Source of the DNA: Candidatus Woesearchaeota archaeon
GTDB taxonomy: Archaea > Nanobdellota > Nanobdellia > SCGC-AAA011-G17 > PNOQ01
Direction of reading: 5' to 3'
DNA: 49,265 nt
Assembly (NCBI GenBank): GCA_018693795.1
Contig: JABHMJ010000010.1
Coordinates: 1 to 49,265 of the forward strand
This document shows positions 1-46,100 of the stretch, in pieces. The notes under the pieces are model-generated. The model was given only the letters and a program-made list of their open reading frames with translations. It did no database searches and was not told the DNA's origin. Numbering within the stretch: the stretch's first letter is position 1; every line of letters starts with the position of its first letter. The position numbers were made by a program, and so were the translations under genes.

Positions 1-3000
1 CCTTCTAATTCTGAAATAGTTCCACCAACTAATGTATCTGTAATTCCGCCAGCTTTAATTCTAGTTCTAACTTCACCATCACATACACCCATCATCCAAT
101 AATGATCTGCAGTTTGTGTTCCAGAAGCTTTTGAAATAATTCTTGGACCACAAGAATTTACAACATCTGGATTTACCCAGGCTGTAATTGTTATTTCATT
201 ATTAACTTGAACATCTCCCATGTTTATTGAATTAGCAATTCCATCAAAATCATAAGCCCCACTTAATTGCCCAGTTATTTGGGTTGGACATGAAGTACAA
301 ACCCCATTATAACTACCAGTAACATCACTATAATCTAAATCTAATGTTAAGTGAGATATTAAAGTTCCAGAAACAGTACAATCACTGTATGAGCATCCAG
401 TTGCAGTACATGTTTTTGTTAAACAATTTTCATTTACTGGACATAATAAATCATTCAATGTTCCTGCACCACATGTTCCTGCGGAACATATGTCATTTTC
501 AGTACAAGTAATTCCATCGTCACATGAATTTGTATTTGGAGTGTTAACACAAGTTCCGGCATTACATGAATCTGTTGTACAAACATTACTGTCCTCACAT
601 TCTGCATCTAAAATACAACCACAATCTTCATCTGTTAAAGTATCACAATCATCATCTAATCCATTTCCACATATTTCTTCGTCGTTTGGAAGTATTTCAC
701 CAACACAACTTCCCCATGTTCCTCCGGAACATGTTTCAGTACCTGCTGAACATTCACCAACGTTTGAACCACAAGATCTTGTATTTCCATCTGTGCAACC
801 AACAGCTGCTGTAAAACTAATTTCTTTTCCATTACTCACTGTTCCATCTGCATCTATTACGAAAAGATAATATGTTTGATCTGAATTTAATGCTCCTTGA
901 TTTGCTGAAAATTGTATTGTTGTTCCATCCCAAGTTGTGTGGGGGATTTGAATTTCACAATTAGTGGCTAAGTCCTTATTTTGATTATTACAAATTTCAA
1001 TTCTTGCAACAGTGTTATCCACATAAACTTCATCCCAATACCACAAACCATTAGCATTATCAGGACAAGCACTACTCACCCCATAATATGACGAAAAGTA
1101 TATTGAATCTGTACATCTTCCTTCACCAAAATAAAAATTATCCACAATTTCCGATTCTATCTCTAAATTTCTAAATGTTTGCCAGAGTCCATCAGTGCCA
1201 AAATGTGCCACCCATTCCCATCGTTCCCAAGAGTCTCTAAAAGGGGTTCCACCAATGCTGCTAATGGCTATATTGTTATTATAATCTTCCCAAACACCAG
1301 ATCGCCACCACCCACTACAATCTCCTCCAGTTCGTATTGCCGGATAATCCCATCCTCCAGCGTTAAGATTCATAAATTTCATACTGCTGGAACTTTCAGT
1401 TTCAGTTCCGTAAAACCAGCCTGTAATGTATATTTCACCATCACAACCATCCGGATAGTTATCCGCCCCCAATAAACTAGTTCCAACAGTCCCTTGTTTA
1501 GAAACAATATTGTTATTTCCCCTAGACACATCATCCGAATATACAGGATCAAACCCTCCCCATTCAGAACCAGTACTCCAACGAGGACCAGATATTATTT
1601 CATTAATAATTCCCTGCTCAAAATCATCTCGTAACCAAGGTGCAACTGGACTCTTAACACCAAACGAACTTCCAGAAATATTAAAACTATCTCCATGCCT
1701 TAAAACACCTAAATTAGAAACATCACCAACATGAGGAACACCAGGAATAACTTGACTAACTTTTAAATTATTTGAACTTTCAATATTAATTAAACTATCT
1801 TCATTTAAACTTGCAACAAAAACATACTCTGGATCTGAATCTCCACCATCAGTATCATCAACCCATTCTGTAATCCAAGTTTGAGTTGCAACTCCAGAAC
1901 TAAAAGTTGTAGAAGCAGGATTAGTTACTGCAACAGGATCTAAATCAACAAATAATAAAAAATCATCTGTGTCAAACAATTCAAAATCTAATTGTTTTCC
2001 ATCACAGTTATTTCCATTAACTGTTAATGTTACTTGTGTGCCTTCATCGGCAGTTGTTGTACTCCAAGATGCTGATGTCAATGAACAATCAGGAATAACT
2101 CCTGATGAAAAACTAACTGGAACACCATTTGAAACTGTTCCATCTTCATCTATTACGAATAAATATAAAGAATCAGTATCTAAGAAAGAACCCTGATTTA
2201 CTTTGAAAGCCAATACATCTGTTGACCATGAAACAAGTTCTTGCATTTCATAATGAACCTCATATGAATTTCCAAAAGGATCAAAAGAATTTGTATCTGC
2301 GATTACAATTCTAGAAAGACTGTCATCAAAAGAAATATCTCCAAAAAGAAATTCCATATCTGGATCAAGGTTAGCCGAAATACTTGGGTCATAACCAATC
2401 ATTCTTATATGATCATAAATACCATCACATGAACTAAAATCAGACCAAGTAGAAACTAATATTCCATCTACGATAGCCCAACTCTTAACTTCAGAAGGAG
2501 AAACATGGGTAATAACTTTAACATGCTCCCATTCGCCTTCACGCATAGAATGAATAGAACCAAAATAATCATTTTCCACCCACTCCATGCAACCATGCAT
2601 TTCTGTAGCAAAAAGAGAACCAGGAACATTTGCAAGTACAAGTTGATCAACCGTACTTGCATCATGCCATTTACGAAGTACTTTGCCAGATACAAAACCG
2701 CCAGGACCTTGGCCAAAATCATGACTAGCCCTAAACCACCAGTCAACATATGTCCATCCTTCTGCATCATTTATATCAAAATTTCTAGCAAAAAATCCTT
2801 TTCTCCCATCAGTATCTGCTAAATTTCTTACAAGATATGATGTATGATTTGAATAACGACTATTTTCACCAATATAAAATCTTGGAACACGCCCATATTC
2901 ATGATTATACCAGGGACAATCTAAACAATATTGCAGGGGATTTCCTTCTCCAACACCATATGTGCCTCTCGTAGGAACAATACTCCCGTGAGAGGTATCA

Positions 3001-31758: not shown

Positions 31759-33183
31759 ATGAAAACAGTAGAAAAACTATTAGAAAAAGCAATATCAAAA
31801 ATTCCTAAAGAGAAAGTGGGATTATTATTCTCTGGAGGCGTAGATTCACTAGCTTTAGCTTTCTACTTAAAAAAATTAAATTATGACTTTACTTGTTACA
31901 CTGTCGGCATTAAAGGTTCAAAAGATATAAAAGCAGCAAAAAAACTAGCTTCTGAATTAAAATTAAAACATGAAGTGCGTATAATACCTAAAAAAGAAAT
32001 TCCTTCATACTTAGCAAAAGTTGTTCCAATTCTAAGAAATACTTCTCCAGTAGATGTTTCAGTTGGTCTTACTACTTACTTAGCATCTTTATTAGCAAAA
32101 GAAAAAATTGTTATTTCTGGATTAGGTGCAGATGAAATATTTGGTGGTTATTCTAGACATAAAGATTCTAAAGATTTGAATTCTGATTTGAAAAAAGGTT
32201 TAGATAGAGTTTACAACGGCGATTTAAAACGTGATGTTACTATTGCTAACTCTTTAGATAAAGAAATCTTTGCTCCTTTTTTAGATAAATCCTTAGTTGA
32301 TTATTCATTAGAACTTCCTGCAACTCAAAAAATTAAATCTGGTGTAAATAAATTAATTTTACGTGAATTATTAATTTCAAATGGTATTTCAGAAGATTCT
32401 GCTATGCGTTTAAAAAAAGCTGCACAATATGGAACTGGTTTTGATAAAGTAATTACTAAATTAAGTAAAGGTTCTTCAAAAGAAAAATATTTGCGTTCGT
32501 TTTTTAATGTTGCTTCACTTTATTCATCTGGGAAAGATAGTACATATTCATTACAATTAGTTCGCGATATGGGTTATAATGTAAATTCTTTAGTTACTAT
32601 AAAAAGTTCTAATTTGGATAGTTATATGTATCACACTCCTAATGTTGATCTTGTTGTTCTACAAGCTGAATCTTTAGGTTTGCCTTTGCTTGTTGAGAAG
32701 ACATCTGGTTTAAAAGAAGATGAGTTAAAAGATCTTGAGAGAGCTCTTATTAAGGCTAAGAAGAAGTTTTCTATTTCTGGAGTTGTAACTGGTGCATTAT
32801 TTTCTGAATATCAGGCCTCTAGGATTGGAAAGATTTGTGATTCTTTGGGTTTAGAATGTTTTAATCCACTTTGGCATAAAGACCAAGCTTCTTATATGAA
32901 AGAAGTTATTAAAGCTGGATATAAAATTATATTTAGTTCTATCGCTGCCGATGGTCTTTCTAAAGAATGGCTAGGTAAAGAAATTACTTTAGAAGATGTT
33001 GATAAGTTAGTTAAGTTACATGCCAAAAATGGTTTGAATGTTGCTGGAGAAGGAGGAGAATTTGAATCTCTTGTTGTTGATTGTCCTTTGTTTGAAAAAA
33101 AGATTGAAGTTGTTGATTCTTCAATTGAGATGGAAAATGAGTATACTGGCAAGTATTTGATAAAGAAAGCTAAATTAGTTTAA
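31759..33183 (+). CDS. Fusion of asparagine-synthase-like ATP-pyrophosphatase domain and Dph6/diphthine--ammonia ligase-like domain
   Basis: N-term LLFSGGVDSLALA...ISGLGADEIFGGYSRHK; C-term SLYSSGKDSTYSLQL...VVTGALFSEYQASRI...GEGGEFESLVVDCPLF. Confidence 0.88.
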   Translation: MKTVEKLLEKAISKIPKEKVGLLFSGGVDSLALAFYLKKLNYDFTCYTVGIKGSKDIKAAKKLASELKLKHEVRIIPKKEIPSYLAKVVPILRNTSPVDVSVGLTTYLASLLAKEKIVISGLGADEIFGGYSRHKDSKDLNSDLKKGLDRVYNGDLKRDVTIANSLDKEIFAPFLDKSLVDYSLELPATQKIKSGVNKLILRELLISNGISEDSAMRLKKAAQYGTGFDKVITKLSKGSSKEKYLRSFFNVASLYSSGKDSTYSLQLVRDMGYNVNSLVTIKSSNLDSYMYHTPNVDLVVLQAESLGLPLLVEKTSGLKEDELKDLERALIKAKKKFSISGVVTGALFSEYQASRIGKICDSLGLECFNPLWHKDQASYMKEVIKAGYKIIFSSIAADGLSKEWLGKEITLEDVDKLVKLHAKNGLNVAGEGGEFESLVVDCPLFEKKIEVVDSSIEMENEYTGKYLIKKAKLV

Positions 33184-34336
33184 TCCTCTTAACCTTCTCC
33201 TTTACAAACTTCTGCTTAACAAAACTCTCCAAGAACTTACTAGGATCACTAAACTCACGATCCAACTCAACATAAACCTTACTTTTAGAACTCTTAACCT
33301 TTCTACCATACTTCTTCTTAAAAGCCTTAACATGTTCAGAATACTTCAAACTAGGACCATAATGCCTATAAGTCTTAGAAAGAGACTTAACCTTAAACCA
33401 ATAATGCGAAGAATCCCAACCACTATCCTTAACAAAAAAACCATTATAAGAAAAAGAACGCAAAATACGATCATAAAGAGCACGCATCTTAGATAAAGAA
33501 ACATCCTTTCTACCTTCTAAACCAACAACAGAAAGAACAATATAACCTTTCAAAGAACTAACATCAACTTCCTTAAGTACAAAAGAATCTAAACTAAACT
33601 CAGAACAAACCTTAACAAATTCTTTTAACTTCAAAGAAGAAACACCCGCAGCAGCATTTCTTTCAGCCTGAACTGGATCAATCAAAACAAAAGCACCCAA
33701 CTTAGACTTATTAAGTAATTTCAAAGCAATTCCAGAAGAACTATAATGCTTAGCAGGATCTAAAAATAACGAATCCTTAACAGAAGAAAACTTTTTAACA
33801 ACCTTATTAAACGAACCATAATGACTAACCAACAACTCACAAACATAACCAGAAAAACCTTGCAAATGAGATTCAGCACCATACAAATGTTGAGCCTTAA
33901 GTAAAGCTTTCAACTTTCTAACATCATCTTTTCGTTTCAAACGTTTCTTAACATACTTAACATGTAATGGAGAAACATCCATAACATTAACAGCTAACGA
34001 AGCCTTCTTAACATCCAAAACAGGAACAACCTCAAATATAATATCATCAATTACAATATGAAAATAATCTCTAGAACCATGAACAACATGAACTTCCTTA
34101 TACTTCTTACGTAACATAACATAAAGAACAGAAGAAATATCCTCATCTTTATACTTAGAAAAATTAAACTTAACAAAAACATCTATATCTCTATTCCCAG
34201 GTAAATATGTGTCTTTAGCATAAGAACCCCCTAAAAAAAACTTAATATCTCTAGAATCTTTAAACTTAGAAAGAAACTCTTTAACAGTTTTCTTTAACTT
34301 CTTCTTCTCTTCCGAACTAGGAACAATATTTAACAT
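33170..34336 (-). CDS. cca: Archaeal (class I) CCA-adding tRNA nucleotidyltransferase
   Basis: GGSYAKDTYLPGNRDIDVFV, LKAQHLYGAESHLQGFSGYVCELL, DPVQAERNAAAGVS. Confidence 0.93.
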   Translation of the reverse strand: MLNIVPSSEEKKKLKKTVKEFLSKFKDSRDIKFFLGGSYAKDTYLPGNRDIDVFVKFNFSKYKDEDISSVLYVMLRKKYKEVHVVHGSRDYFHIVIDDIIFEVVPVLDVKKASLAVNVMDVSPLHVKYVKKRLKRKDDVRKLKALLKAQHLYGAESHLQGFSGYVCELLVSHYGSFNKVVKKFSSVKDSLFLDPAKHYSSSGIALKLLNKSKLGAFVLIDPVQAERNAAAGVSSLKLKEFVKVCSEFSLDSFVLKEVDVSSLKGYIVLSVVGLEGRKDVSLSKMRALYDRILRSFSYNGFFVKDSGWDSSHYWFKVKSLSKTYRHYGPSLKYSEHVKAFKKKYGRKVKSSKSKVYVELDREFSDPSKFLESFVKQKFVKEKVKRIKLI

Positions 34337-34479
34337 ATGAATAAACTAAATTAAACATTTAAAAAAGTAACTACCCAGAATAATTAACCTAAATCTTAAA
34401 AGTTTAAAAATATTTCTACAAAACAACATATAACATGCACCATAATAGAAATTATAAAAAATAAACCCAAATTTTTAAA

Positions 34480-34755
34480 ATGGCAATAGAAAAAATAGAA
34501 GGAACATGTGTTGTTTGTGATTTAGAATACACGATAAAACAAATAACACATTGGGATGATGGATACGGAGATTCAAAACACGAATGGCAACAATGTCCAG
34601 AATGTAAATACAATCCGGCCTTAACAAGTGAACTAGAAGAAAGAATAAAATTTTACACAGAAATAACTTTAAGAGCAAATAATCTCCCAAGTATAAATTC
34701 TGAAAAAGTTATAGAAAATCTAGTGTCTGTGTTAAAGAAATATTGGCCAACCTAA
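34480..34755 (+). CDS. Small zinc-ribbon-like protein
   Basis: CVVC...CPEC. Confidence 0.65.
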   Translation: MAIEKIEGTCVVCDLEYTIKQITHWDDGYGDSKHEWQQCPECKYNPALTSELEERIKFYTEITLRANNLPSINSEKVIENLVSVLKKYWPT

Positions 34756-34779
34756 ACAATTTTTTTTGCAAATCTTTAC

Positions 34780-34831
34780 GTTCACATTAATTCTAAAAGA
34801 ATTATGCACGGTTGTAAAACAACTTGTGAAC
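34780..34831. repeat. Structured three-way-junction repeat, copy 1
   Basis: GTTCACA-T-TAATTC-TAAAA-GAATTA-TGCACG-GTTGT-AAA-ACAAC-T-TGTGAAC; ~25 nt after the stop of 34480-34755. Confidence 0.85.
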
Positions 34832-34879
34832 ACTTTTCTAAATAGTTTATTTTATAAATATCAAATAAAATTTATAATT

Positions 34880-35278
34880 ATGAAAAAAGGAATTGTCATA
34901 GGATTAATTCTCGCAGTTTTAGGTTATGTTTTAAGTATTGCATCAGAAGCAACACAAGATTCTGCAGTAATAACTTCATACGTAACTGGAGGATTTGAAC
35001 TTATCTTCTATTTAATATCCATCCCATTAATTTATCACACAGGGAAAAAAATAAGAAAAGAATCAAAAAAAGAAGGAAATCCCGGATTAAGATTAGTAAG
35101 TTGGATAATGTACGGAGTAGCAATTCCACACGCCCTATTATTTTTTAATTGGGGATTAATCGCAGCAGGAAACAATCGAATACCAAATGGCCAAATACCT
35201 GTAAACTCAGTTATTTTCTTTATTGCAGCAATGTTAATGGTTGCAGATGCATGGAATTCTTACAAACAACATTTATAA
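34880..35278 (+). CDS. Multi-pass membrane protein, unknown
   Basis: Start moved to MKKGIVIGLIL at 34880 because the track ORF start (34766) lies upstream of the repeat element and before a TTTATAAAT box. Confidence 0.65.
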   Translation: MKKGIVIGLILAVLGYVLSIASEATQDSAVITSYVTGGFELIFYLISIPLIYHTGKKIRKESKKEGNPGLRLVSWIMYGVAIPHALLFFNWGLIAAGNNRIPNGQIPVNSVIFFIAAMLMVADAWNSYKQHL

Positions 35279-35281
35279 TTT

Positions 35282-35473
35282 TTACTTCAAAACAAATAAT
35301 TCTTCAACACTAACTTTCAAAACTTTAGAAATAGAAAAAGCTAATTGAAGAGAAGGATTATATTTCCCTTGCTCCAAAAAAACAATAGTCTCTCTTCGAA
35401 CCCCAACTTTCTTAGCTAAATCTTCTTGAGTTAAATTATACTTAGCTCTAAACTCTTTAATCCTAGTTTTCAT
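35282..35473 (-). CDS. XRE-family HTH regulator
   Basis: [47 protein letters not shown]. Confidence 0.92.
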
Positions 35474-35874
35474 TTTCTATTATAGTACACCCAACATAAT
35501 CCAAAAAGGATAGCCATACCTAAAACTCCAATGCCCGTTGCTTCTGAAATATCCTCAAAATACAACCATCCGTTTGAAGAACTCCATCCAATAAACAATA
35601 TCCAATACAAAGATATCAAATAAGCTTTAGAACCTGCCTTTTTCATAATATCCTCTGATCTTTCATCATGAATAGAAAATCCTTTTTTTACTTCTTTATA
35701 TTCTCTTTTCAAAAAAGCAATTGCAAACACTAAAACCACAATAGCAATAATAATACTCAAAATACTCCCAACAAATGTTCCATTTTTAAAAGAAACTATT
35801 GAGAATAATATTAATCCTGAAGCTAATAAAAAAGCCGCAATTCCTATCGAATATACTTTTAATTTATCTTTCAT
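35470..35874 (-). CDS. DUF2178-like membrane protein
   Basis: Four hydrophobic segments with central [16 protein letters not shown]; overlaps the HTH gene, a pairing commonly seen in archaea. Confidence 0.8.
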
Positions 35875-36014
35875 TTTTCCTCCATGTTAGATTTACTTAA
35901 CTTTATGTTAGAAATAGATAACATATACTATATAAACTTTTCTATTTTGATAACAAAAAACCACATTTATGATTAACTATTTATCCAACAAACTAATGTA
36001 ATAACAAAAAAACC

Positions 36015-36572
36015 TTACGCTCGAACCCTTCTTCTATAGAAATCAGCCAAAAACATATTATCAGTAAATGCCATTGCTGGAAAACCAATTAAAACTATAA
36101 TCATTAAAGCAAACACAATAACTAACAATATACTCTTCAAAATTACAGTAATATAATCTCCAATATTATAAAATACTGATTTCAAAACCTTAAACTCAAA
36201 ATAAGAACTCACAGTTTCTTTATTATAAAAATTCACAGTTAAAATTGGAACAATAAATACTCCTAAAAATATATCAGTTAAACTCCCAAACCACGGAAAA
36301 ACAAATCCAAAAATTTCAACAATTACAAAATAAGCTATCATAAATGGAAGTCCTTTAAAAAACATAAAAAATCCTAATTCTAAATCACTACTAAATTTGA
36401 ACAAAGGCAATTTCTTAAATTTACCTTTACTAAACTCTTTAACAATTCTAATACTATAACCACTCAAAGCAAGCCAGCCAAAAATAGGCAATAAAATCCA
36501 TAAAATATTCCACAAACCTTTAGCCCTATTAAAGGGATAACTGAATGCATGCTTAAACTTTAAAGTTCTCAT
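36015..36572 (-). CDS. DUF4013-like membrane protein
   Basis: AFSYPFNRAKGLWNILWILLPIFGWLALSGYSIRIVKEFSKGKFKKLPLF. Confidence 0.75.
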   Translation of the reverse strand: MRTLKFKHAFSYPFNRAKGLWNILWILLPIFGWLALSGYSIRIVKEFSKGKFKKLPLFKFSSDLELGFFMFFKGLPFMIAYFVIVEIFGFVFPWFGSLTDIFLGVFIVPILTVNFYNKETVSSYFEFKVLKSVFYNIGDYITVILKSILLVIVFALMIIVLIGFPAMAFTDNMFLADFYRRRVRA

Positions 36573-36654
36573 AATATTAACAACTATAATTAATATAAAA
36601 GCTTTACGTTAAAAATAGTTTACTTTATAAACCATTCAATATTTCCAATTAAAA

Positions 36655-36993
36655 ATGATAGAAGTAATGATTCACGAAAGAGATCTTGATAGTCCAGTAC
36701 AACACCAATCACGACTTGAAGTTTTCAGAAATGTAATTGATGATTGTTTTCCATCTAATTATCCTCTTGAACTAATGCCAAAAACGGGAAATGTAGGACC
36801 AAGTGTAGCAAAATTCATACCAGATTATAATTTAATAATAATGTATGAAATTTCTTTTAAAAGAAAACAAGTAGATGGAAAACATCTAAAAGAAAAAATA
36901 TCTCTAATCACTAGAGAAAAAGTAGCTGCAATAATAGAACAATTAGAAGATAATAAAAAATATTGGAATTCTTATTTACTTAAAGAGGAATAA
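36655..36993 (+). CDS. Hypothetical protein
   Basis: 112-aa ORF, promoter-like TTTATAAACC upstream. Confidence 0.6.
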   Translation: MIEVMIHERDLDSPVQHQSRLEVFRNVIDDCFPSNYPLELMPKTGNVGPSVAKFIPDYNLIIMYEISFKRKQVDGKHLKEKISLITREKVAAIIEQLEDNKKYWNSYLLKEE

Positions 36994-37229
36994 TTAACCA
37001 ACTCTTCCTTATATGCACGATTAGAATTCTTAATAAAATACTCTCGCTTCATAGCTAATTCCTTACTAGAAAACTCCTCGGAATAAACTAATTCTTTAAA
37101 CCCTTTAGCCCTAACATATTTTGATCCTTTTCCAGATTTATGTTTCAAAATTCTCTTAGAAACATCATCAGTATAACCAGTATAATAACTTCCATCCAAA
37201 CATTCAAGAATATAAACAAAAAAAGCCAT
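36972..37229 (-). CDS. GIY-YIG nuclease-like protein (YhbQ-type)
   Basis: FFVYILECLDGSYYTGYTDDVSKRILKHKSGKGSKYVRAKGFKELVYSEEF; start set to MAFFVYIL. Confidence 0.9.
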   Translation of the reverse strand: MAFFVYILECLDGSYYTGYTDDVSKRILKHKSGKGSKYVRAKGFKELVYSEEFSSKELAMKREYFIKNSNRAYKEELVNYSSLSK

Positions 37230-37299
37230 AATAATTCTAAACAAATCATCTTTTTAACTTTTACGTTACTTATTTAAACAAATAAACAATAATAAAACT

Positions 37300-37536
37300 A
37301 TGAATAAATTAACAATTGCAGGAACAATATTATTTGGATTAGGATTACTAGTAGAAATAATATATTCTATCTACCCATTATTTAGTTTAAATGAAGATGT
37401 ACTTCTATTAGGATTAAGAAGAGGAATGATCTGGATGGCATTAGGAGCAATAATGATATTAATCTCGTTAATAAAAGAAAGAATAGATGACGATAAAGAA
37501 TTAAAAAAAATAAACAAGGAGGACTTAGAACCATGA
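37300..37536 (+). CDS. Small membrane protein
   Basis: 78 aa, two hydrophobic segments, overlaps the next ORF by 4 nt. Confidence 0.65.
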   Translation: MNKLTIAGTILFGLGLLVEIIYSIYPLFSLNEDVLLLGLRRGMIWMALGAIMILISLIKERIDDDKELKKINKEDLEP

Positions 37537-37853
37537 TTTTAACAACAACAGAAAAAATAGCAAACAAAGAAGTAGAAAAAACACTAGGATTAGTAAAAGG
37601 TAATGTAATTCAATCTAAACACGTAGGAAAAGACATAATAGCCAGTTTCAAACAAATAATTGGTGGAGAAATAAAACAATACACAGAAATGCTAAGTGAA
37701 GCAAGAGAAATTGCAACTAAAAGAATGATCACAAAAGCTGAAAAACTAGATGCAGATGCAATTATCAATGTAAGATTTATGACTTCAATGGTTATGACTG
37801 GAGCTGCAGAAATTCTAGCTTATGGAACAGCTGTTAAATTAAAAAAAGATTAA
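37533..37853 (+). CDS. YbjQ/UPF0145-family protein
   Basis: GLVKGNVIQSKHVGKDIIASFKQIIGGEIKQYTEMLSEAREIATKRM...ADAIINVRF. Confidence 0.9.
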   Translation: MILTTTEKIANKEVEKTLGLVKGNVIQSKHVGKDIIASFKQIIGGEIKQYTEMLSEAREIATKRMITKAEKLDADAIINVRFMTSMVMTGAAEILAYGTAVKLKKD

Positions 37854-37881
37854 TTTTTATTTAAAAAAAATAAAAAAAATA

Positions 37882-38073
37882 TTATTTTTTATCTTTTACT
37901 TGTTTTTCATCAACACAAGAACCACTATCGCAAGCCTTGCATTTGAAAACATGTAATAACAATACTAAACCTGAAGCTACTACTAACCATTTTGTCCAAG
38001 CAGCTGGTTCCCATAAAGTAAATACAATAACAATTAATGGTATAATAATTCCCATACCTTTACATCCATGCAT
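37882..38073 (-). CDS. Small membrane protein with Cys-rich tail
   Basis: 63 aa; GGAGGTG SD-like sequence upstream; TATA at ~38113. Confidence 0.65.
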   Translation of the reverse strand: MHGCKGMGIIIPLIVIVFTLWEPAAWTKWLVVASGLVLLLHVFKCKACDSGSCVDEKQVKDKK

Positions 38074-38146
38074 ATATCTTCACCTCCATTTAAGAAAAAT
38101 ATTGATTTTACTATTTATAATCTTTACGTTAATATTATCTTTAAAA

Positions 38147-38158
38147 ACGTTTATAAAT
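38147..38158 (+). promoter_or_regulatory. Candidate TATA box of the 38181 gene
   Basis: ACGTTTATAAAT, ~23-34 nt upstream of ATG, consistent with a short or leaderless 5' end. Confidence 0.5.
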
Positions 38159-38180
38159 TGCATGAAACCTTCTTAAATTA

Positions 38181-38546
38181 ATGAAATACATAAAACCAAT
38201 AAAAAATTTAGATGATTTAAAGGAAGGAGACGAAATTCTTATCCAACATGGCAGTATGGGTAATTATGCATTTAGAAATTATTCTGGCCATGGGTATGTT
38301 ATAGAAGTAAAAGAAATATTTTATGGGTTTCAAGAAAAAGATACTCCAAGGTTAAAGGAAAGAGGGCTTATACCAAACAAAACATTATATTTAAAAGATT
38401 ATGTTGAATTTCCATTCACAATAGGTTTTGATGAGGAATCCCCAAATTCCGAAATAGTTGATTGGTTAAGAGAACAAGAAAAGAGAGAAGAAAAAAGTAT
38501 GCCACTAGGAAGAATATCATTAAGTAAAATAGTAGAAAGAAATTAA
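38181..38546 (+). CDS. Hypothetical protein
   Basis: 121-aa ORF. Confidence 0.65.
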   Translation: MKYIKPIKNLDDLKEGDEILIQHGSMGNYAFRNYSGHGYVIEVKEIFYGFQEKDTPRLKERGLIPNKTLYLKDYVEFPFTIGFDEESPNSEIVDWLREQEKREEKSMPLGRISLSKIVERN

Positions 38547-38569
38547 TTATTTAATTCTAAAAACTTTAC

Positions 38570-38619
38570 GTTCACATTAATTCAAAGAATTATGCACAGT
38601 TGTAAAACAACTTGTGAAC
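38570..38619. repeat. Structured three-way-junction repeat, copy 2
   Basis: GTTCACA-T-TAATTC-AAA-GAATTA-TGCACA-GTTGT-AAA-ACAAC-T-TGTGAAC; ~24 nt after the stop of 38181-38546. Confidence 0.85.
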
Positions 38620-38637
38620 GCTTCCCAAAGGTTTGTA

Positions 38638-40554
38638 TTAAAACCCACTACTCAATCCTAAATCAAGCAAAGGTTTATCATTCAAAATTCCAAAAATCAA
38701 TGTATCTTCTGCACCAAAGAAAAACTCAATCAAGGCAAACCCCGGAGTAAAAGAACGACGATAAACTGCCCACAACCCCTCATCCTGAGAAGTCACACTT
38801 TCAAAACTAACACCCTCTTTAATTCCACGTAAAGTAAAATAAGAAAATCCAGAGGTTTCAAAAGTAAATTTAGTTTTTTCAGCGTTATAACTAATATCAA
38901 CTAAATCTAAAGATTCCCACCCATCTTCTGTTAATCTATACAATCCAATAGCAACAATCTGATTTAAAACTAATAAATCATTCAAAACATCAAATTCTAA
39001 TGTAGAACTCCCCGTTGCTTGAATATCATAAAATCCAAAATTAACACTATCTGGAATATCCAATTCCTCAACAAAAGAAGGATGAGTCTCATACTCAACT
39101 ACACTCTCTAAATTTCCTCCAGTAACACTAACTAAATCAGATAAACTATCAGAAACTTCTTCAATAGGAACTGTTACACTGGCAACATCAGAATTATCAA
39201 CACAAATACCACCATTACAAATAAATCCAGAACAACATTCAGATTCACCTAAACAACTCCCTCCAGAAATACCAACACATGAAAGATCAACAACATCATC
39301 AGGAGAGAAAAATGGAACATTATCTCTATCGCCAGACACTACATCAATAACTCCCTTAAAGGCCCCTCCACCAAAAACATCAGAAGAAGAAACATCAAAC
39401 AACTCAGAAATTTCACCAACATCATCAGAAACTAAAGCTTCAGAAGTTTTCTTTACTTTATTATCGACAGAATAAACAACTTCTAAAGGAATCTCCAATC
39501 TATCTTGTAAATTTTCAACTTTTACAACATCAGTAATTATAGATCCACTTGATAATAATATCTCCTCATCAACCCCTTTTTGAATTAATTCTTTAACTCT
39601 CTCACTTCCTTCAATTAAATTATATTCATTCTCTAATTGTCTCCACAATGAACCATTCACACTAGAATTTCCATTAACAACAGGAACTCCATCAGAAATT
39701 AAACATATTCCACTATCTCCACAATAATAACCAGCACCACATCCACAAGCACTACAGTCATAAACTAATTCTTTATCAGAATCACAAAGCAAAGGTTTAG
39801 TCAAAGAACATTGTCCAGGAACAGAACCATCACTACAAGAATTTGAACCTATACTATAAACACTAGGTAAAGAAACTCCATCAGGAAATACATAACAATA
39901 AGCATTTTCACCTTGGCAATTTTGATCACTACAACCAGTGTTAGAATCCGGCCCCAAAGTATTTAAAATCATTCCAAATGGGGCCTGATTAAACCATTGT
40001 TCACCACAAACACAAATAGAAGGTTCATTAATAACACACTTTGGCAAACACCATCCAAAACCTCTATTCAAATAACATATCCCATTATCACCACAATCCG
40101 CAGTTTCCCAAACACAATCTTCTACACAACTCCCACACGATTCAGAATTATCACAAACCCCATCACCACAAGAAGAACTAGAATCTCCTCCATCATCAGA
40201 ATTATAACATCCAGAATTATCAAAAGTACAATCATTATTACAACTTAAAGAACCAGAATTATAACCAAAAGAATTACAAGATTTAAAATCTAACTGTCCA
40301 CCATCACACTCTTCTGCATCATCAACAACTCCATCTCCACACCAACAATCTTCTGGGCAATTATCTCCATCTTCTCCATTTAAACGATTACAAGCACCGT
40401 TTCCACATATACTTCCATTTAATCCTCCATCAACACCAGTAGCCATACCAGTAATTAAATAATTATTTTTCACAACAGCAGAACCAATAACATAACTAAA
40501 AGAAGCAACTAATAAAAATAACATTACAACAGTAACCATCCTCTCTCTTTTCAT
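38638..40554 (-). CDS. Large Cys-rich surface protein
   Basis: TM + LITGMATG; multiple CGDG/CDNSESCGSC repeats. Confidence 0.85.
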   Translation of the reverse strand: MKRERMVTVVMLFLLVASFSYVIGSAVVKNNYLITGMATGVDGGLNGSICGNGACNRLNGEDGDNCPEDCWCGDGVVDDAEECDGGQLDFKSCNSFGYNSGSLSCNNDCTFDNSGCYNSDDGGDSSSSCGDGVCDNSESCGSCVEDCVWETADCGDNGICYLNRGFGWCLPKCVINEPSICVCGEQWFNQAPFGMILNTLGPDSNTGCSDQNCQGENAYCYVFPDGVSLPSVYSIGSNSCSDGSVPGQCSLTKPLLCDSDKELVYDCSACGCGAGYYCGDSGICLISDGVPVVNGNSSVNGSLWRQLENEYNLIEGSERVKELIQKGVDEEILLSSGSIITDVVKVENLQDRLEIPLEVVYSVDNKVKKTSEALVSDDVGEISELFDVSSSDVFGGGAFKGVIDVVSGDRDNVPFFSPDDVVDLSCVGISGGSCLGESECCSGFICNGGICVDNSDVASVTVPIEEVSDSLSDLVSVTGGNLESVVEYETHPSFVEELDIPDSVNFGFYDIQATGSSTLEFDVLNDLLVLNQIVAIGLYRLTEDGWESLDLVDISYNAEKTKFTFETSGFSYFTLRGIKEGVSFESVTSQDEGLWAVYRRSFTPGFALIEFFFGAEDTLIFGILNDKPLLDLGLSSGF

Positions 40555-43116: not shown

Positions 43117-46100
43117 CTAATATTTAAATAACCCAAATAAAAAATTCCAAAATCCTGTTGAAGGTGGTGCAAGTTGTGGCTCACTTCCAGTGTATACCCA
43201 ATAAGCATTTCCTAAAACTACACTTCCCGGTAAAATTGGAGAAGTTTCGTTAAATAATTGATTTAAATCAAAATCATAACCCACTATAGAAGTTCCAACC
43301 AAATTCCAATTATCTACTCCCAATGGAGATACATAACTTTCATTTAAAGTTCCATTGAATAAAATACTTTGATCACTAGTAGAATAAACAATATATCCCT
43401 TTAATGGTTCAATAACCCCAACTTCGCTAAGAATATCTTTATAATTAATGTCCCATCCATCATTATATTCTAAAACAATATCTGAATTAAATTTACTAAC
43501 TCCATTTTCAAGCAATCCTCTCAATGGGACAGAAACATAATTCCATCCAGTTGTTAGATCTAAAATATACGAATCAGGATAAGTCATAACAATACAAGAA
43601 GCATCTGCACTACAATCACTATCCCCACAATCTGTAGTTAAATCACAATCATTATTCAAAACATCATTACATGTTAATTCTGTAGCTTCGTAATTTATAA
43701 CACTAGAATAATCATCAAACCATCCTAAAACACCGTTACAAGCTTGAACACTACCTACACAAACACCATCTTGTAATGTATTTAAAGGTTCAATTAAATT
43801 ATCATCATCCACCCCAGTACAATCATCATCTAATCCATTACATGTTTCTGTTAAAGGAGTTCCAGTAGAACAAACAGTTTCTATACCAACATTACAACTT
43901 GAGGCAACATTTCCTGCTGCACATTCTCCAGGCAAAAAACAACTACTATCTATAATATAATCTTCATCTGTAAATCCATCACAATTATTATCTAAATTAT
44001 CACAGCTAAAATCTCCTATTTCTTGGGGAGGCAACACAACACAAGTATCTTCCTGAGATCCAGCTATACAATCTAAAATTCCAGAATTTACACAAACTCC
44101 AACACCACAAGAAGTTATATTTCCATACCATCCTTCACTAGACCCATCTAAAGTTCCTGCACTACAATCATTATCTACATTGTCACAACTTTCGGTAGCA
44201 CCTGGGTAAGTAGTTCCAACAATATCATTACAATCATCATATCCATTAAATGAAACAATGCCAGAAGTATCACAACCACTAGCCAAAGATTCAGCTACCC
44301 AACCATCTCCATCCACATCAGTACAAGAAACTACATCTGAAACAGTAATAGAACTAGTAAGATTTGGACCAAATTGATGATCTACTGTCCCATCAATATA
44401 ACATACAGCATCTCTTATTCCAGCACTTCCAATATTATTACAATTAAATTCACAAGAACTATCTGCACCGCCACAAGTTCCTGCAGCATAATTACATGGG
44501 CCCACCCCCTCAATAAATGCTTCAGAACCCTCGCTAAATACATCAGCAGTACATGTTACATGTATTCTATTTCCAACAAAAGGAGTTGAATCATTAACAA
44601 AAATATCAGTAAGAGTAACTAAACATTCATCATCTCCTAACCTAACGCCATAAACCCCATAATCATAATTTATATCGCAATCATCATCTATCCCATTACC
44701 ACAATCCTCGGTTTGTCCAGGGAATACATTAATATTTCCATCAGCACAATCATCATATCCATAAAATGGAACAATTCCAGAAGTATCACATGAACCTCCC
44801 TCTACAACATAACCATCAGAATCAGAATCCGTACACGCAACAGTAGGTATGGTTCCATCAACCATTATTGTTTGAATATCTATTGCAAAAAGTGCACTTT
44901 CATAAATTCTCACATCATCAATAATTCCATCAAAATAATCTCCAGAATCTCCACCAGTATTAAATCCAATCAAAGTATCAACTCCAGTTCCAAGATCTAG
45001 ATTTCCACCAACTGAATGTGCTTGAGAAGCAACTTCAATCCCATTTTTATAAATTCTAATTGTTACACCATCATAACTAACTGCTAAATGAACGAAACCA
45101 TCTGTTTCTGAAATACTTCCACCTTCAAATGTATCTGTAGTTCCACCTGCTTTTATTCTAGTTCTAATTTGACCATTACAAATACCCATCATCCAATTAT
45201 GGTCTGCAGTTTGCACTCCAGAAGCTTTTGAAACAATTCTTGGACCACAAGAATTTACAAAATCTGGATTTACCCACGCTGTAATAGTTATTTCATCATT
45301 AACTAAAACATCTCCTATGTTTAATGAATTAGTAACCCCATCAAAATCATATCCTCCATTTAATTGCCCAGTTATTTGATTTGGACATGATGTACAACTC
45401 CCATCATAACTTCCAGCAATATCATTATAATCTGAATCTAATGTTAAATGAGCTATTAAATTTCCATAAGTAACCCCAGAAAAGGTACAAACTCCAGCCT
45501 GACAAGTTTCTCCACCAACGCCACAAGAAGTACCATCTAAAGCGGGAGCATAAGTTGGATCAATTGGAATACAATAAGTTCCACTACAAAAAGGATCAAC
45601 TGCTAAACATAAAACATCACAAGAAGGATCTGCTCCAGGCCCAGGAATGGAACATGTAACACTATCAATGCCATCACAATTTTGATCTATTCCATCATCA
45701 TCTATTTCTGTAGCCCCAGGATAAATACTATTATTTGCATCATTACAATCTCCAGTAACTGCAACATTTCCAGAAGCAGCAAAATCAGCAAGATATATTG
45801 GGCTTAAAAGTGCCCCAGAACATATATCTGGTCCAGGAAGATCTCCATAACCATCGCCATCCCCATCTATAAATGTTGAATGGAAAGCAAACCTATCTAC
45901 ATCCGAATCATCACAATCAACATTATCATTGGATAATCCATTAGCAATCAAATAAGCCATAAAAGCCGGATTGGTTTGACTATAATGTTGACAAACACCA
46001 TAAACAGTTGGTAAACTATCCAATAACCCATGTAGATCTCCGTCTCCATCTAAGTACAAATCTTGAAGTTCCATTGCATCAGCATTAGTATCATTACAAT

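What the first reader, a model, noticed from the sequence alone, without database searches (positions are those of the whole stretch)
34780..34831. Two-copy ~50-nt element that folds as a three-way junction and keeps its pairing
Copies at 34780-34831 and 38570-38619 (same orientation) share P1 GTTCACA/TGTGAAC (7 bp), P2 TAATTC/GAATTA (6 bp) and P3 GTTGT/ACAAC (5 bp). Differences fall where a structure would tolerate them: P2 loop TAAAA vs AAA, and the base extending P3 is G (G-U with T34824) vs A (A-U). Both start ~24 nt after a plus-strand stop codon and are preceded by CTTTAC. It could be a 3'-UTR/terminator element, a small ncRNA, or a non-autonomous mobile repeat; the sequence alone cannot decide.
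Basis: seen in the sequence. Interest (0 to 1): 0.75.

Follow-up and report, generated by a model that had tools for sequence, protein, structure and literature searches.

The report
Archaeal REP-like repeat with branched insert
The two copies are real: they are enlarged, three-armed members of a family of short DNA palindromes scattered through the genomes of related tiny archaea, probably spread as single-stranded DNA; such repeats are well described in bacteria but, as far as I could find, not in archaea of this kind.

Summary
Both copies are where stated, fold as a three-way junction and are far beyond chance. One correction: copy 1 has a 7-bp P2 with an AAA loop, so the copies differ by one whole T-A pair. 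The 5' edge is sharp at an invariant TTTACG; the 3' end runs on into a second palindrome.

Only four such copies were found: two here, two in a sister species. None is in a third congener or in about 380 sampled genomes of the phylum. That second palindrome, GTGAACGCTTTTnnAAAAGGGTT, is the core of a wider dispersed family, TTTTYCGYGAACGYTTTTYCTAAAARGGTTC. It occurs in several genomes of the order, often just after stop codons, sometimes inside ORFs. Its hairpin shows compensatory changes (94% and 97% paired, about 50% when shuffled). Its copies share one strand within contigs, mostly the C-rich strand. The finding's element equals this palindrome with about 45 nt of branched sequence inserted behind the tag. 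Both copies lie in a 4.26-kb gene island absent from the sister genome.

Best reading: a REP-like palindromic element, probably moved as single-stranded DNA. The repeat family is shown; the mechanism is inferred, and no Y1 transposase was found in the own genome. RNA-element and cassette-site readings remain open.

The parts
34774..34858 (+). Y copy 1 with tag and tail: CTTTACG tag; P1 34780-34786/34825-34831; P2 34788-34794/34798-34804; unpaired TGCAC 34805-34809; P3 34810-34815/34819-34824; tail palindrome GTGAACACTTTTCTAAATAGTTTA up to about 34858
38564..38637 (+). Y copy 2 with tag and tail (GTGAACGCTTCCCAAAGGTTTG); ends at the right border of the island
36602..36631 (+). degenerate site without the junction: CTTTACGTTAAAAATAGTTTACTTTATAAA, upstream of the DUF4013 gene start at the position where G001:C28 has a Y copy
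   Evidence: weak by model, 19 bits; exact 9-mer tag
38122..38158 (+). degenerate site: CTTTACGTTAATATTATCTTTAAAAACGTTTATAAATT
   Evidence: weak by model, 17 bits; exact 9-mer tag
34378..38637 (.). 4.26-kb gene island of 11 small genes holding all four sites; absent from G002 (flanking genes adjoin there), and the flanking genes are also close together in G005 and G008

Best explanation
The element is a lineage-specific, enlarged member of a family of short dispersed palindromes (REP-like) in this archaeal order. The basic unit is a one-sided tag (TTTTYCG, here TTTACG) followed by an imperfect hairpin GAAC-G-YTTTT-YCT-AAAAR-G-GTTC. In the lineage of this genome and its sister, about 45 nt carrying two small hairpins came to lie between tag and hairpin. 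The ends GTTCAC and GTGAAC pair with each other and, with the two hairpins, make the three-way junction. How it most likely works (inferred, not shown): the structured single strand is the substrate of a nuclease or transposase acting on replication-exposed single-stranded DNA. That would put copies next to genes in variable islands and on the same strand relative to replication. It probably has no fixed RNA function, though copies behind stop codons will be transcribed.
For: Shown: four Y copies at non-matching positions in two congeners, none in the third. Both window copies lie in an island absent from G002. Junction-free versions occur in G001. A model trained only on G000/G001 sites finds groups of 6-8 relatives in distant genomes. 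The strict core pattern gives 12-15 hits in G010, G067 and G072 with a control maximum of 2 per strand. Y tails align to the family consensus: C35, both window copies above all 500 shuffles. Compensatory pairs in 66 sites: 94% and 97% against 50% and 53% shuffled. Polarity: 31 of 32 hits on the majority strand of their contig, P about 1e-5, and the site strand is C-rich in 35 of 40 loci. Traits match bacterial REPs as described in PMC3733652, and lagging-strand insertion is documented for IS608 and ISDra2 (PMC6006769).
Against: No Y1 (TnpA/RAYT) domain in the own genome; not tested in the site-rich genomes. No clean empty site for a single element. Copy numbers are low for REPs (about 5-15 per genome with a strict pattern). 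C28's tail matches the consensus only weakly (7 of 500 shuffles as good). Polarity does not hold for three of the G001 sites, and coding direction could explain part of the skew. The Y arms show no compensatory change.
Confidence: 0.55

Rival explanations
1. Transcribed RNA element: a 3'-UTR hairpin or junction that protects or ends the upstream mRNA, or a small RNA. The family hairpin is kept for its function in RNA.
For: Three of the four Y copies lie about 23-28 nt behind a stop codon in the same direction. Of 21 fetched family sites with a co-oriented upstream gene, 11 start within -1 to 5 nt of its stop. Compensatory pairs.
Against: C28's copy is antisense and upstream of a gene start. 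Family sites occur inside ORFs (11 of 49). No Rfam match. No RNA explains the strand polarity. The reading orientation relative to the upstream gene differs between this genus and the others.
Confidence: 0.18
2. Recombination sites of an integron-like gene-cassette system: each small gene of the island plus its 3' site is a cassette moved by a tyrosine recombinase.
For: Four same-strand sites, all intergenic, in the island. In G001:C28 five TTTACGTTC sites share one strand. The DUF4013 gene is bracketed by sites in both genomes. This genome and G001 have 6 tyrosine-recombinase hits each against 1-2 in relatives.
Against: The integron R boxes (RYYYAAC/GTTRRRY, own knowledge) are not met. No recombinase reaches the integron-integrase cut-off. 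None lies next to the copies. In other genomes the sites are scattered singly over 60-kb contigs.
Confidence: 0.1
3. Replication- or chromosome-related DNA signal (skewed motif such as Chi- or KOPS-like sites) or another protein-binding site, fixed by selection rather than spread by insertion.
For: Strong strand polarity and link to GC skew in G072 and G010.
Against: Patchy: zero to two strict matches in most genomes of the order; low density; a large structured insert in one genus only; occurrence inside ORFs.
Confidence: 0.1

Closest known systems
GTAG- and CGTC-tagged REPs of bacteria (Di Nocera et al. 2013, PMC3733652), with RPE and dRS3 elements among them
   Same: 20-40 bp imperfect palindrome, unpaired tag at one end, mostly downstream of coding regions, some inside ORFs, several subfamilies; dimers there can have structured spacers with two small hairpins
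   Different: Tag is TTTTYCG (TTTACG here); archaeal host; fewer copies; here a three-way-junction insert between tag and hairpin; no REP-type transposase known in archaea (PMC6006769)
IS200/IS605 elements (IS608, ISDra2) and their non-autonomous derivatives
   Same: Hairpins in single-stranded DNA next to a short T-rich motif; replication-linked strand polarity
   Different: No Y1 transposase in the own genome; no left-end/right-end pair; no internal gene
Integron attC sites (bacterial and archaeal, PMC9668308)
   Same: Structured sites behind genes, same orientation within the island, variable inserted structure
   Different: R-box consensus not met; no integron integrase; sites mostly single and scattered in other genomes
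MITEs of archaea (reviewed in PMC10969869)
   Same: Short, AT-rich, palindromic, intergenic or inside ORFs
   Different: About 30-90 nt; no target-site duplication seen; no autonomous partner found

Membership tests
REP (repetitive extragenic palindrome) | Short (20-40 bp) palindrome that forms a hairpin | tested here: met
   Family core hairpin with compensatory changes; the Y form is longer (about 65-90 nt)
REP (repetitive extragenic palindrome) | Unpaired tag at one end (GTAG or CGTC type) | tested here: inconclusive
   A one-sided tag exists (TTTTYCG/TTTACG) but is neither GTAG nor CGTC
REP (repetitive extragenic palindrome) | Many copies, mainly downstream of genes | tested here: inconclusive
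   5-15 per site-bearing genome with a strict pattern; location fits
REP (repetitive extragenic palindrome) | Associated Y1 transposase (RAYT); not seen for CGTC REPs | tested here: not met
   No PF01797 match in the own genome (85% complete); not tested in the other genomes
Integron attC | R boxes RYYYAAC...GTTRRRY | tested here: not met
   Arms are GTTCAC/GTGAAC or CAAAC/GTTTG
Integron attC | Integron integrase in the genome | tested here: not met
   The seven extra recombinases of G000 and G001 tested score below the TIGR02249 cut-off
MITE | Target-site duplication and ends matched to a transposase | tested here: inconclusive
   TTTAC on the left is invariant; TTTA(C) recurs on the right of some short sites; no clean empty site and no partner found
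Known Rfam RNA family | Match to a curated covariance model | tested here: not met
   None at gathering threshold; only chance-level matches below it

The most novel reading that the evidence does not exclude
A previously undescribed archaeal REP-like system: a palindrome family spread through one order of small-genome archaea, inserted by an unidentified single-strand enzyme with replication polarity, in which one genus evolved a three-way-junction form. The triple covariation between tag and stem (CCG 32, TTA 19, 2 discordant) may mark an intramolecular triplex used for recognition.
Probability: 0.3. Interest if true: 0.68.

Novelty: new variant of a known kind. Interest (0 to 1): 0.47.

Why it matters
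A survey of complete genomes found only the IS200 subclass of Y1 enzymes in archaea, not the REP-type ones (PMC6006769). A REP-like family in small-genome archaea would therefore mean another enzyme or an independent origin. The finding gives a searchable consensus, a strand-polarity prediction and a structural-covariation prediction, all testable on closed genomes.

Tried and rejected
Viral relatives: the first pattern gave one chance hit inside a coding region (L015); all later viral scans failed because the machine gave no answer. Phage and plasmid blastn: only chance matches. Weak model hits in G010:C13, G069:C10 and G000:C40 do not fold alike. The L014 hit lies inside a coding gene. Scanning fetched loci, including those around the tyrosine recombinases, for the Y shape: nothing new. 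The integron reading was favoured for a while and demoted once the scattered relatives appeared. A promoter-element reading of CTTTACGTT (several sites lie just upstream of TATA-like boxes) was dropped because the G001:C28 sites have no such gene downstream.

Full report
Observation. Both copies are present as described and fold as a three-way junction as RNA or DNA. The 3' 21-mer is found twice, with none expected. The shape itself is rare: one hit in about 1 Mb of simulated sequence. Copy 1 has one extra T-A pair in P2, not a larger loop.

Distribution of the Y form. BLAST and a covariance model built from four copies find two copies in this genome (662 kb, 85% complete), two in a congener (G001, archaeon SMBSF35 bin_108), and no convincing match in a third congener (G002), in the rest of the order or in 380 sampled genomes of the phylum. 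The 5' edge is sharp at TTTACG. After the junction a conserved RCTTYnnnAAAnRGTTTR tail follows. Within the Y the stems are nearly invariant in sequence. There is no compensatory change, and both G001 copies lose the innermost P1 pair.

Surroundings. In G002 the genes on either side (the CCA-adding enzyme gene at 33170-34336 and the gene at 38638-40554) adjoin with about 38 nt between them. Window 34378-38637 is thus an island of 11 small genes. They include an HTH_3 regulator, DUF4013, a GIY-YIG nuclease and YbjQ; most of the rest have no clear family. Copy 2 ends at the right border of the island. In G001 one copy sits next to RadC, where homology with this genome stops about 15 nt from the element. 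The other sits upstream of a DUF4013 gene homologous to the one in the island. Closeness to a border is partly forced, because the gaps between genes are short. CTTTACGTT, the start of the element, occurs exactly four times in the window, all + strand and all intergenic within the island. Two of these are the Y copies; the other two (36602, 38122) are degenerate sites without the junction (0.005 expected in the island).

The wider family. G001:C28 carries junction-free versions, for example TTTACGTTCAAACGCTTTCCTAAAGGGTTTGCTTTAC directly behind a stop codon. A model of these (R2, trained on G000/G001 only, with three rows in which the junction was left out) finds groups of 6 to 8 relatives in distant genomes of the order. 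A strict pattern of the core gives 12-15 hits in G010, G067 and G072 and zero to two in most others; the reversed control pattern never exceeds two per strand. The family consensus is TTTTYCGYGAACGYTTTTYCTAAAARGGTTC. The 3' tails of the Y copies align to it: GTGAACGCTTTTGAAAAGGGTT in C35 scores 35 against a shuffled maximum of 22, both window copies score above all 500 shuffles, and C28 is weak. The Y element is therefore the family palindrome with a branched segment between tag and hairpin (inference from alignment).

Structure of the family. In 66 sites from 16 genomes the base before AAC and the base after GTT form a Watson-Crick pair in 94% (G-C 43, T-A 11, A-T 7, C-G 1), against 50% when shuffled. 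The inner Y-R pair is paired in 97% against 53%. Slid positions are at background. Some of this may reflect two amplified subfamilies (C-type, T-type), but several genomes hold both, and four pair types occur. The tag base at -5 covaries with the inner pair (CCG 32, TTA 19, 2 discordant), which a pyrimidine-motif triplex would explain; two subfamilies would explain it too. This is not tested.

Position and polarity. Of 49 fetched sites, 11 lie inside ORFs. Of 21 sites with a co-oriented upstream gene, 11 start -1 to 5 nt from its stop codon (simple ORF calls). Within contigs, 31 of 32 hits share the majority strand (P about 1e-5), and the site strand is C-rich in 35 of 40 loci. A few of these pairs lie close together and may be tandem copies. 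Coding direction correlates in part, so it is not fully excluded as the cause. The window and C28 agree with this polarity; C35, C45 and C22 do not.

Interpretation. Dispersion, downstream location, occasional intragenic copies and a one-sided tag are the published traits of bacterial REPs (PMC3733652). Polarity is what insertion into lagging-strand single-stranded DNA would give (PMC6006769). The survey there found only the IS200 subclass of Y1 enzymes in archaea, and I found no Y1 domain in this genome. The enzyme is therefore unknown, and 'REP-like' is the right word rather than 'REP'. The cassette-site reading (integron-like) would explain the arrays in this genus. It fails on the R boxes and the integrase and does not explain the scattered sites elsewhere. 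The RNA reading cannot be excluded without transcript data.

Limits. MAGs of 60-100% completeness; genomes unnamed; the viral collection was not searchable after the first scan; no metagenome scan was available; polarity rests on a few genomes; literature was checked only in open-access papers, so 'not described before' is provisional.

Noticed in passing
window 36972-37244 (-); G001:C28 309-608, 3023-3098, 3681-3737: A small GIY-YIG nuclease gene lies between the two copies; G001:C28 has one intact relative and two remnants of its 3' end in intergenic gaps, near the family sites. From memory (not verified here), a GIY-YIG single-strand nuclease acts on dispersed repeats in Neisseria, so it is a candidate partner.
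   Followed up: partly
family sites in G072, G067, G010, G061 (L154-L193): Triple covariation of tag base -5 with the inner stem pair (CCG or TTA) forms a mirror repeat TTTTYC...GYTTTT/AAAARG, as expected for an intramolecular triplex, or for two amplified subfamilies.
   Followed up: partly
G000:C7, C34, C37, C43, C51; G001:C37, C41: This genome and G001 have six tyrosine-recombinase hits each, against 1-2 in relatives; most extra ones are about 400 aa, and C34 and C37 lie beside plasmid- or virus-like genes.
   Followed up: partly
G000:C7 8718-10905 (L079): In this genome a 449-aa tyrosine recombinase sits beside RadC, at the place where G001 carries a Y copy: a shared insertion hot spot.
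   Followed up: partly
window 1-300 and 45098-45397; about 24000-49265: A 300-nt direct repeat (87%) and many repeated Cys-rich segments in large surface-protein-like genes.
   Followed up: no
L166 (G010:C6), L158 (G072:C7), L175 (G067:C3): Some family sites lie beside tRNA genes whose length (108-123 nt) suggests introns.
   Followed up: no
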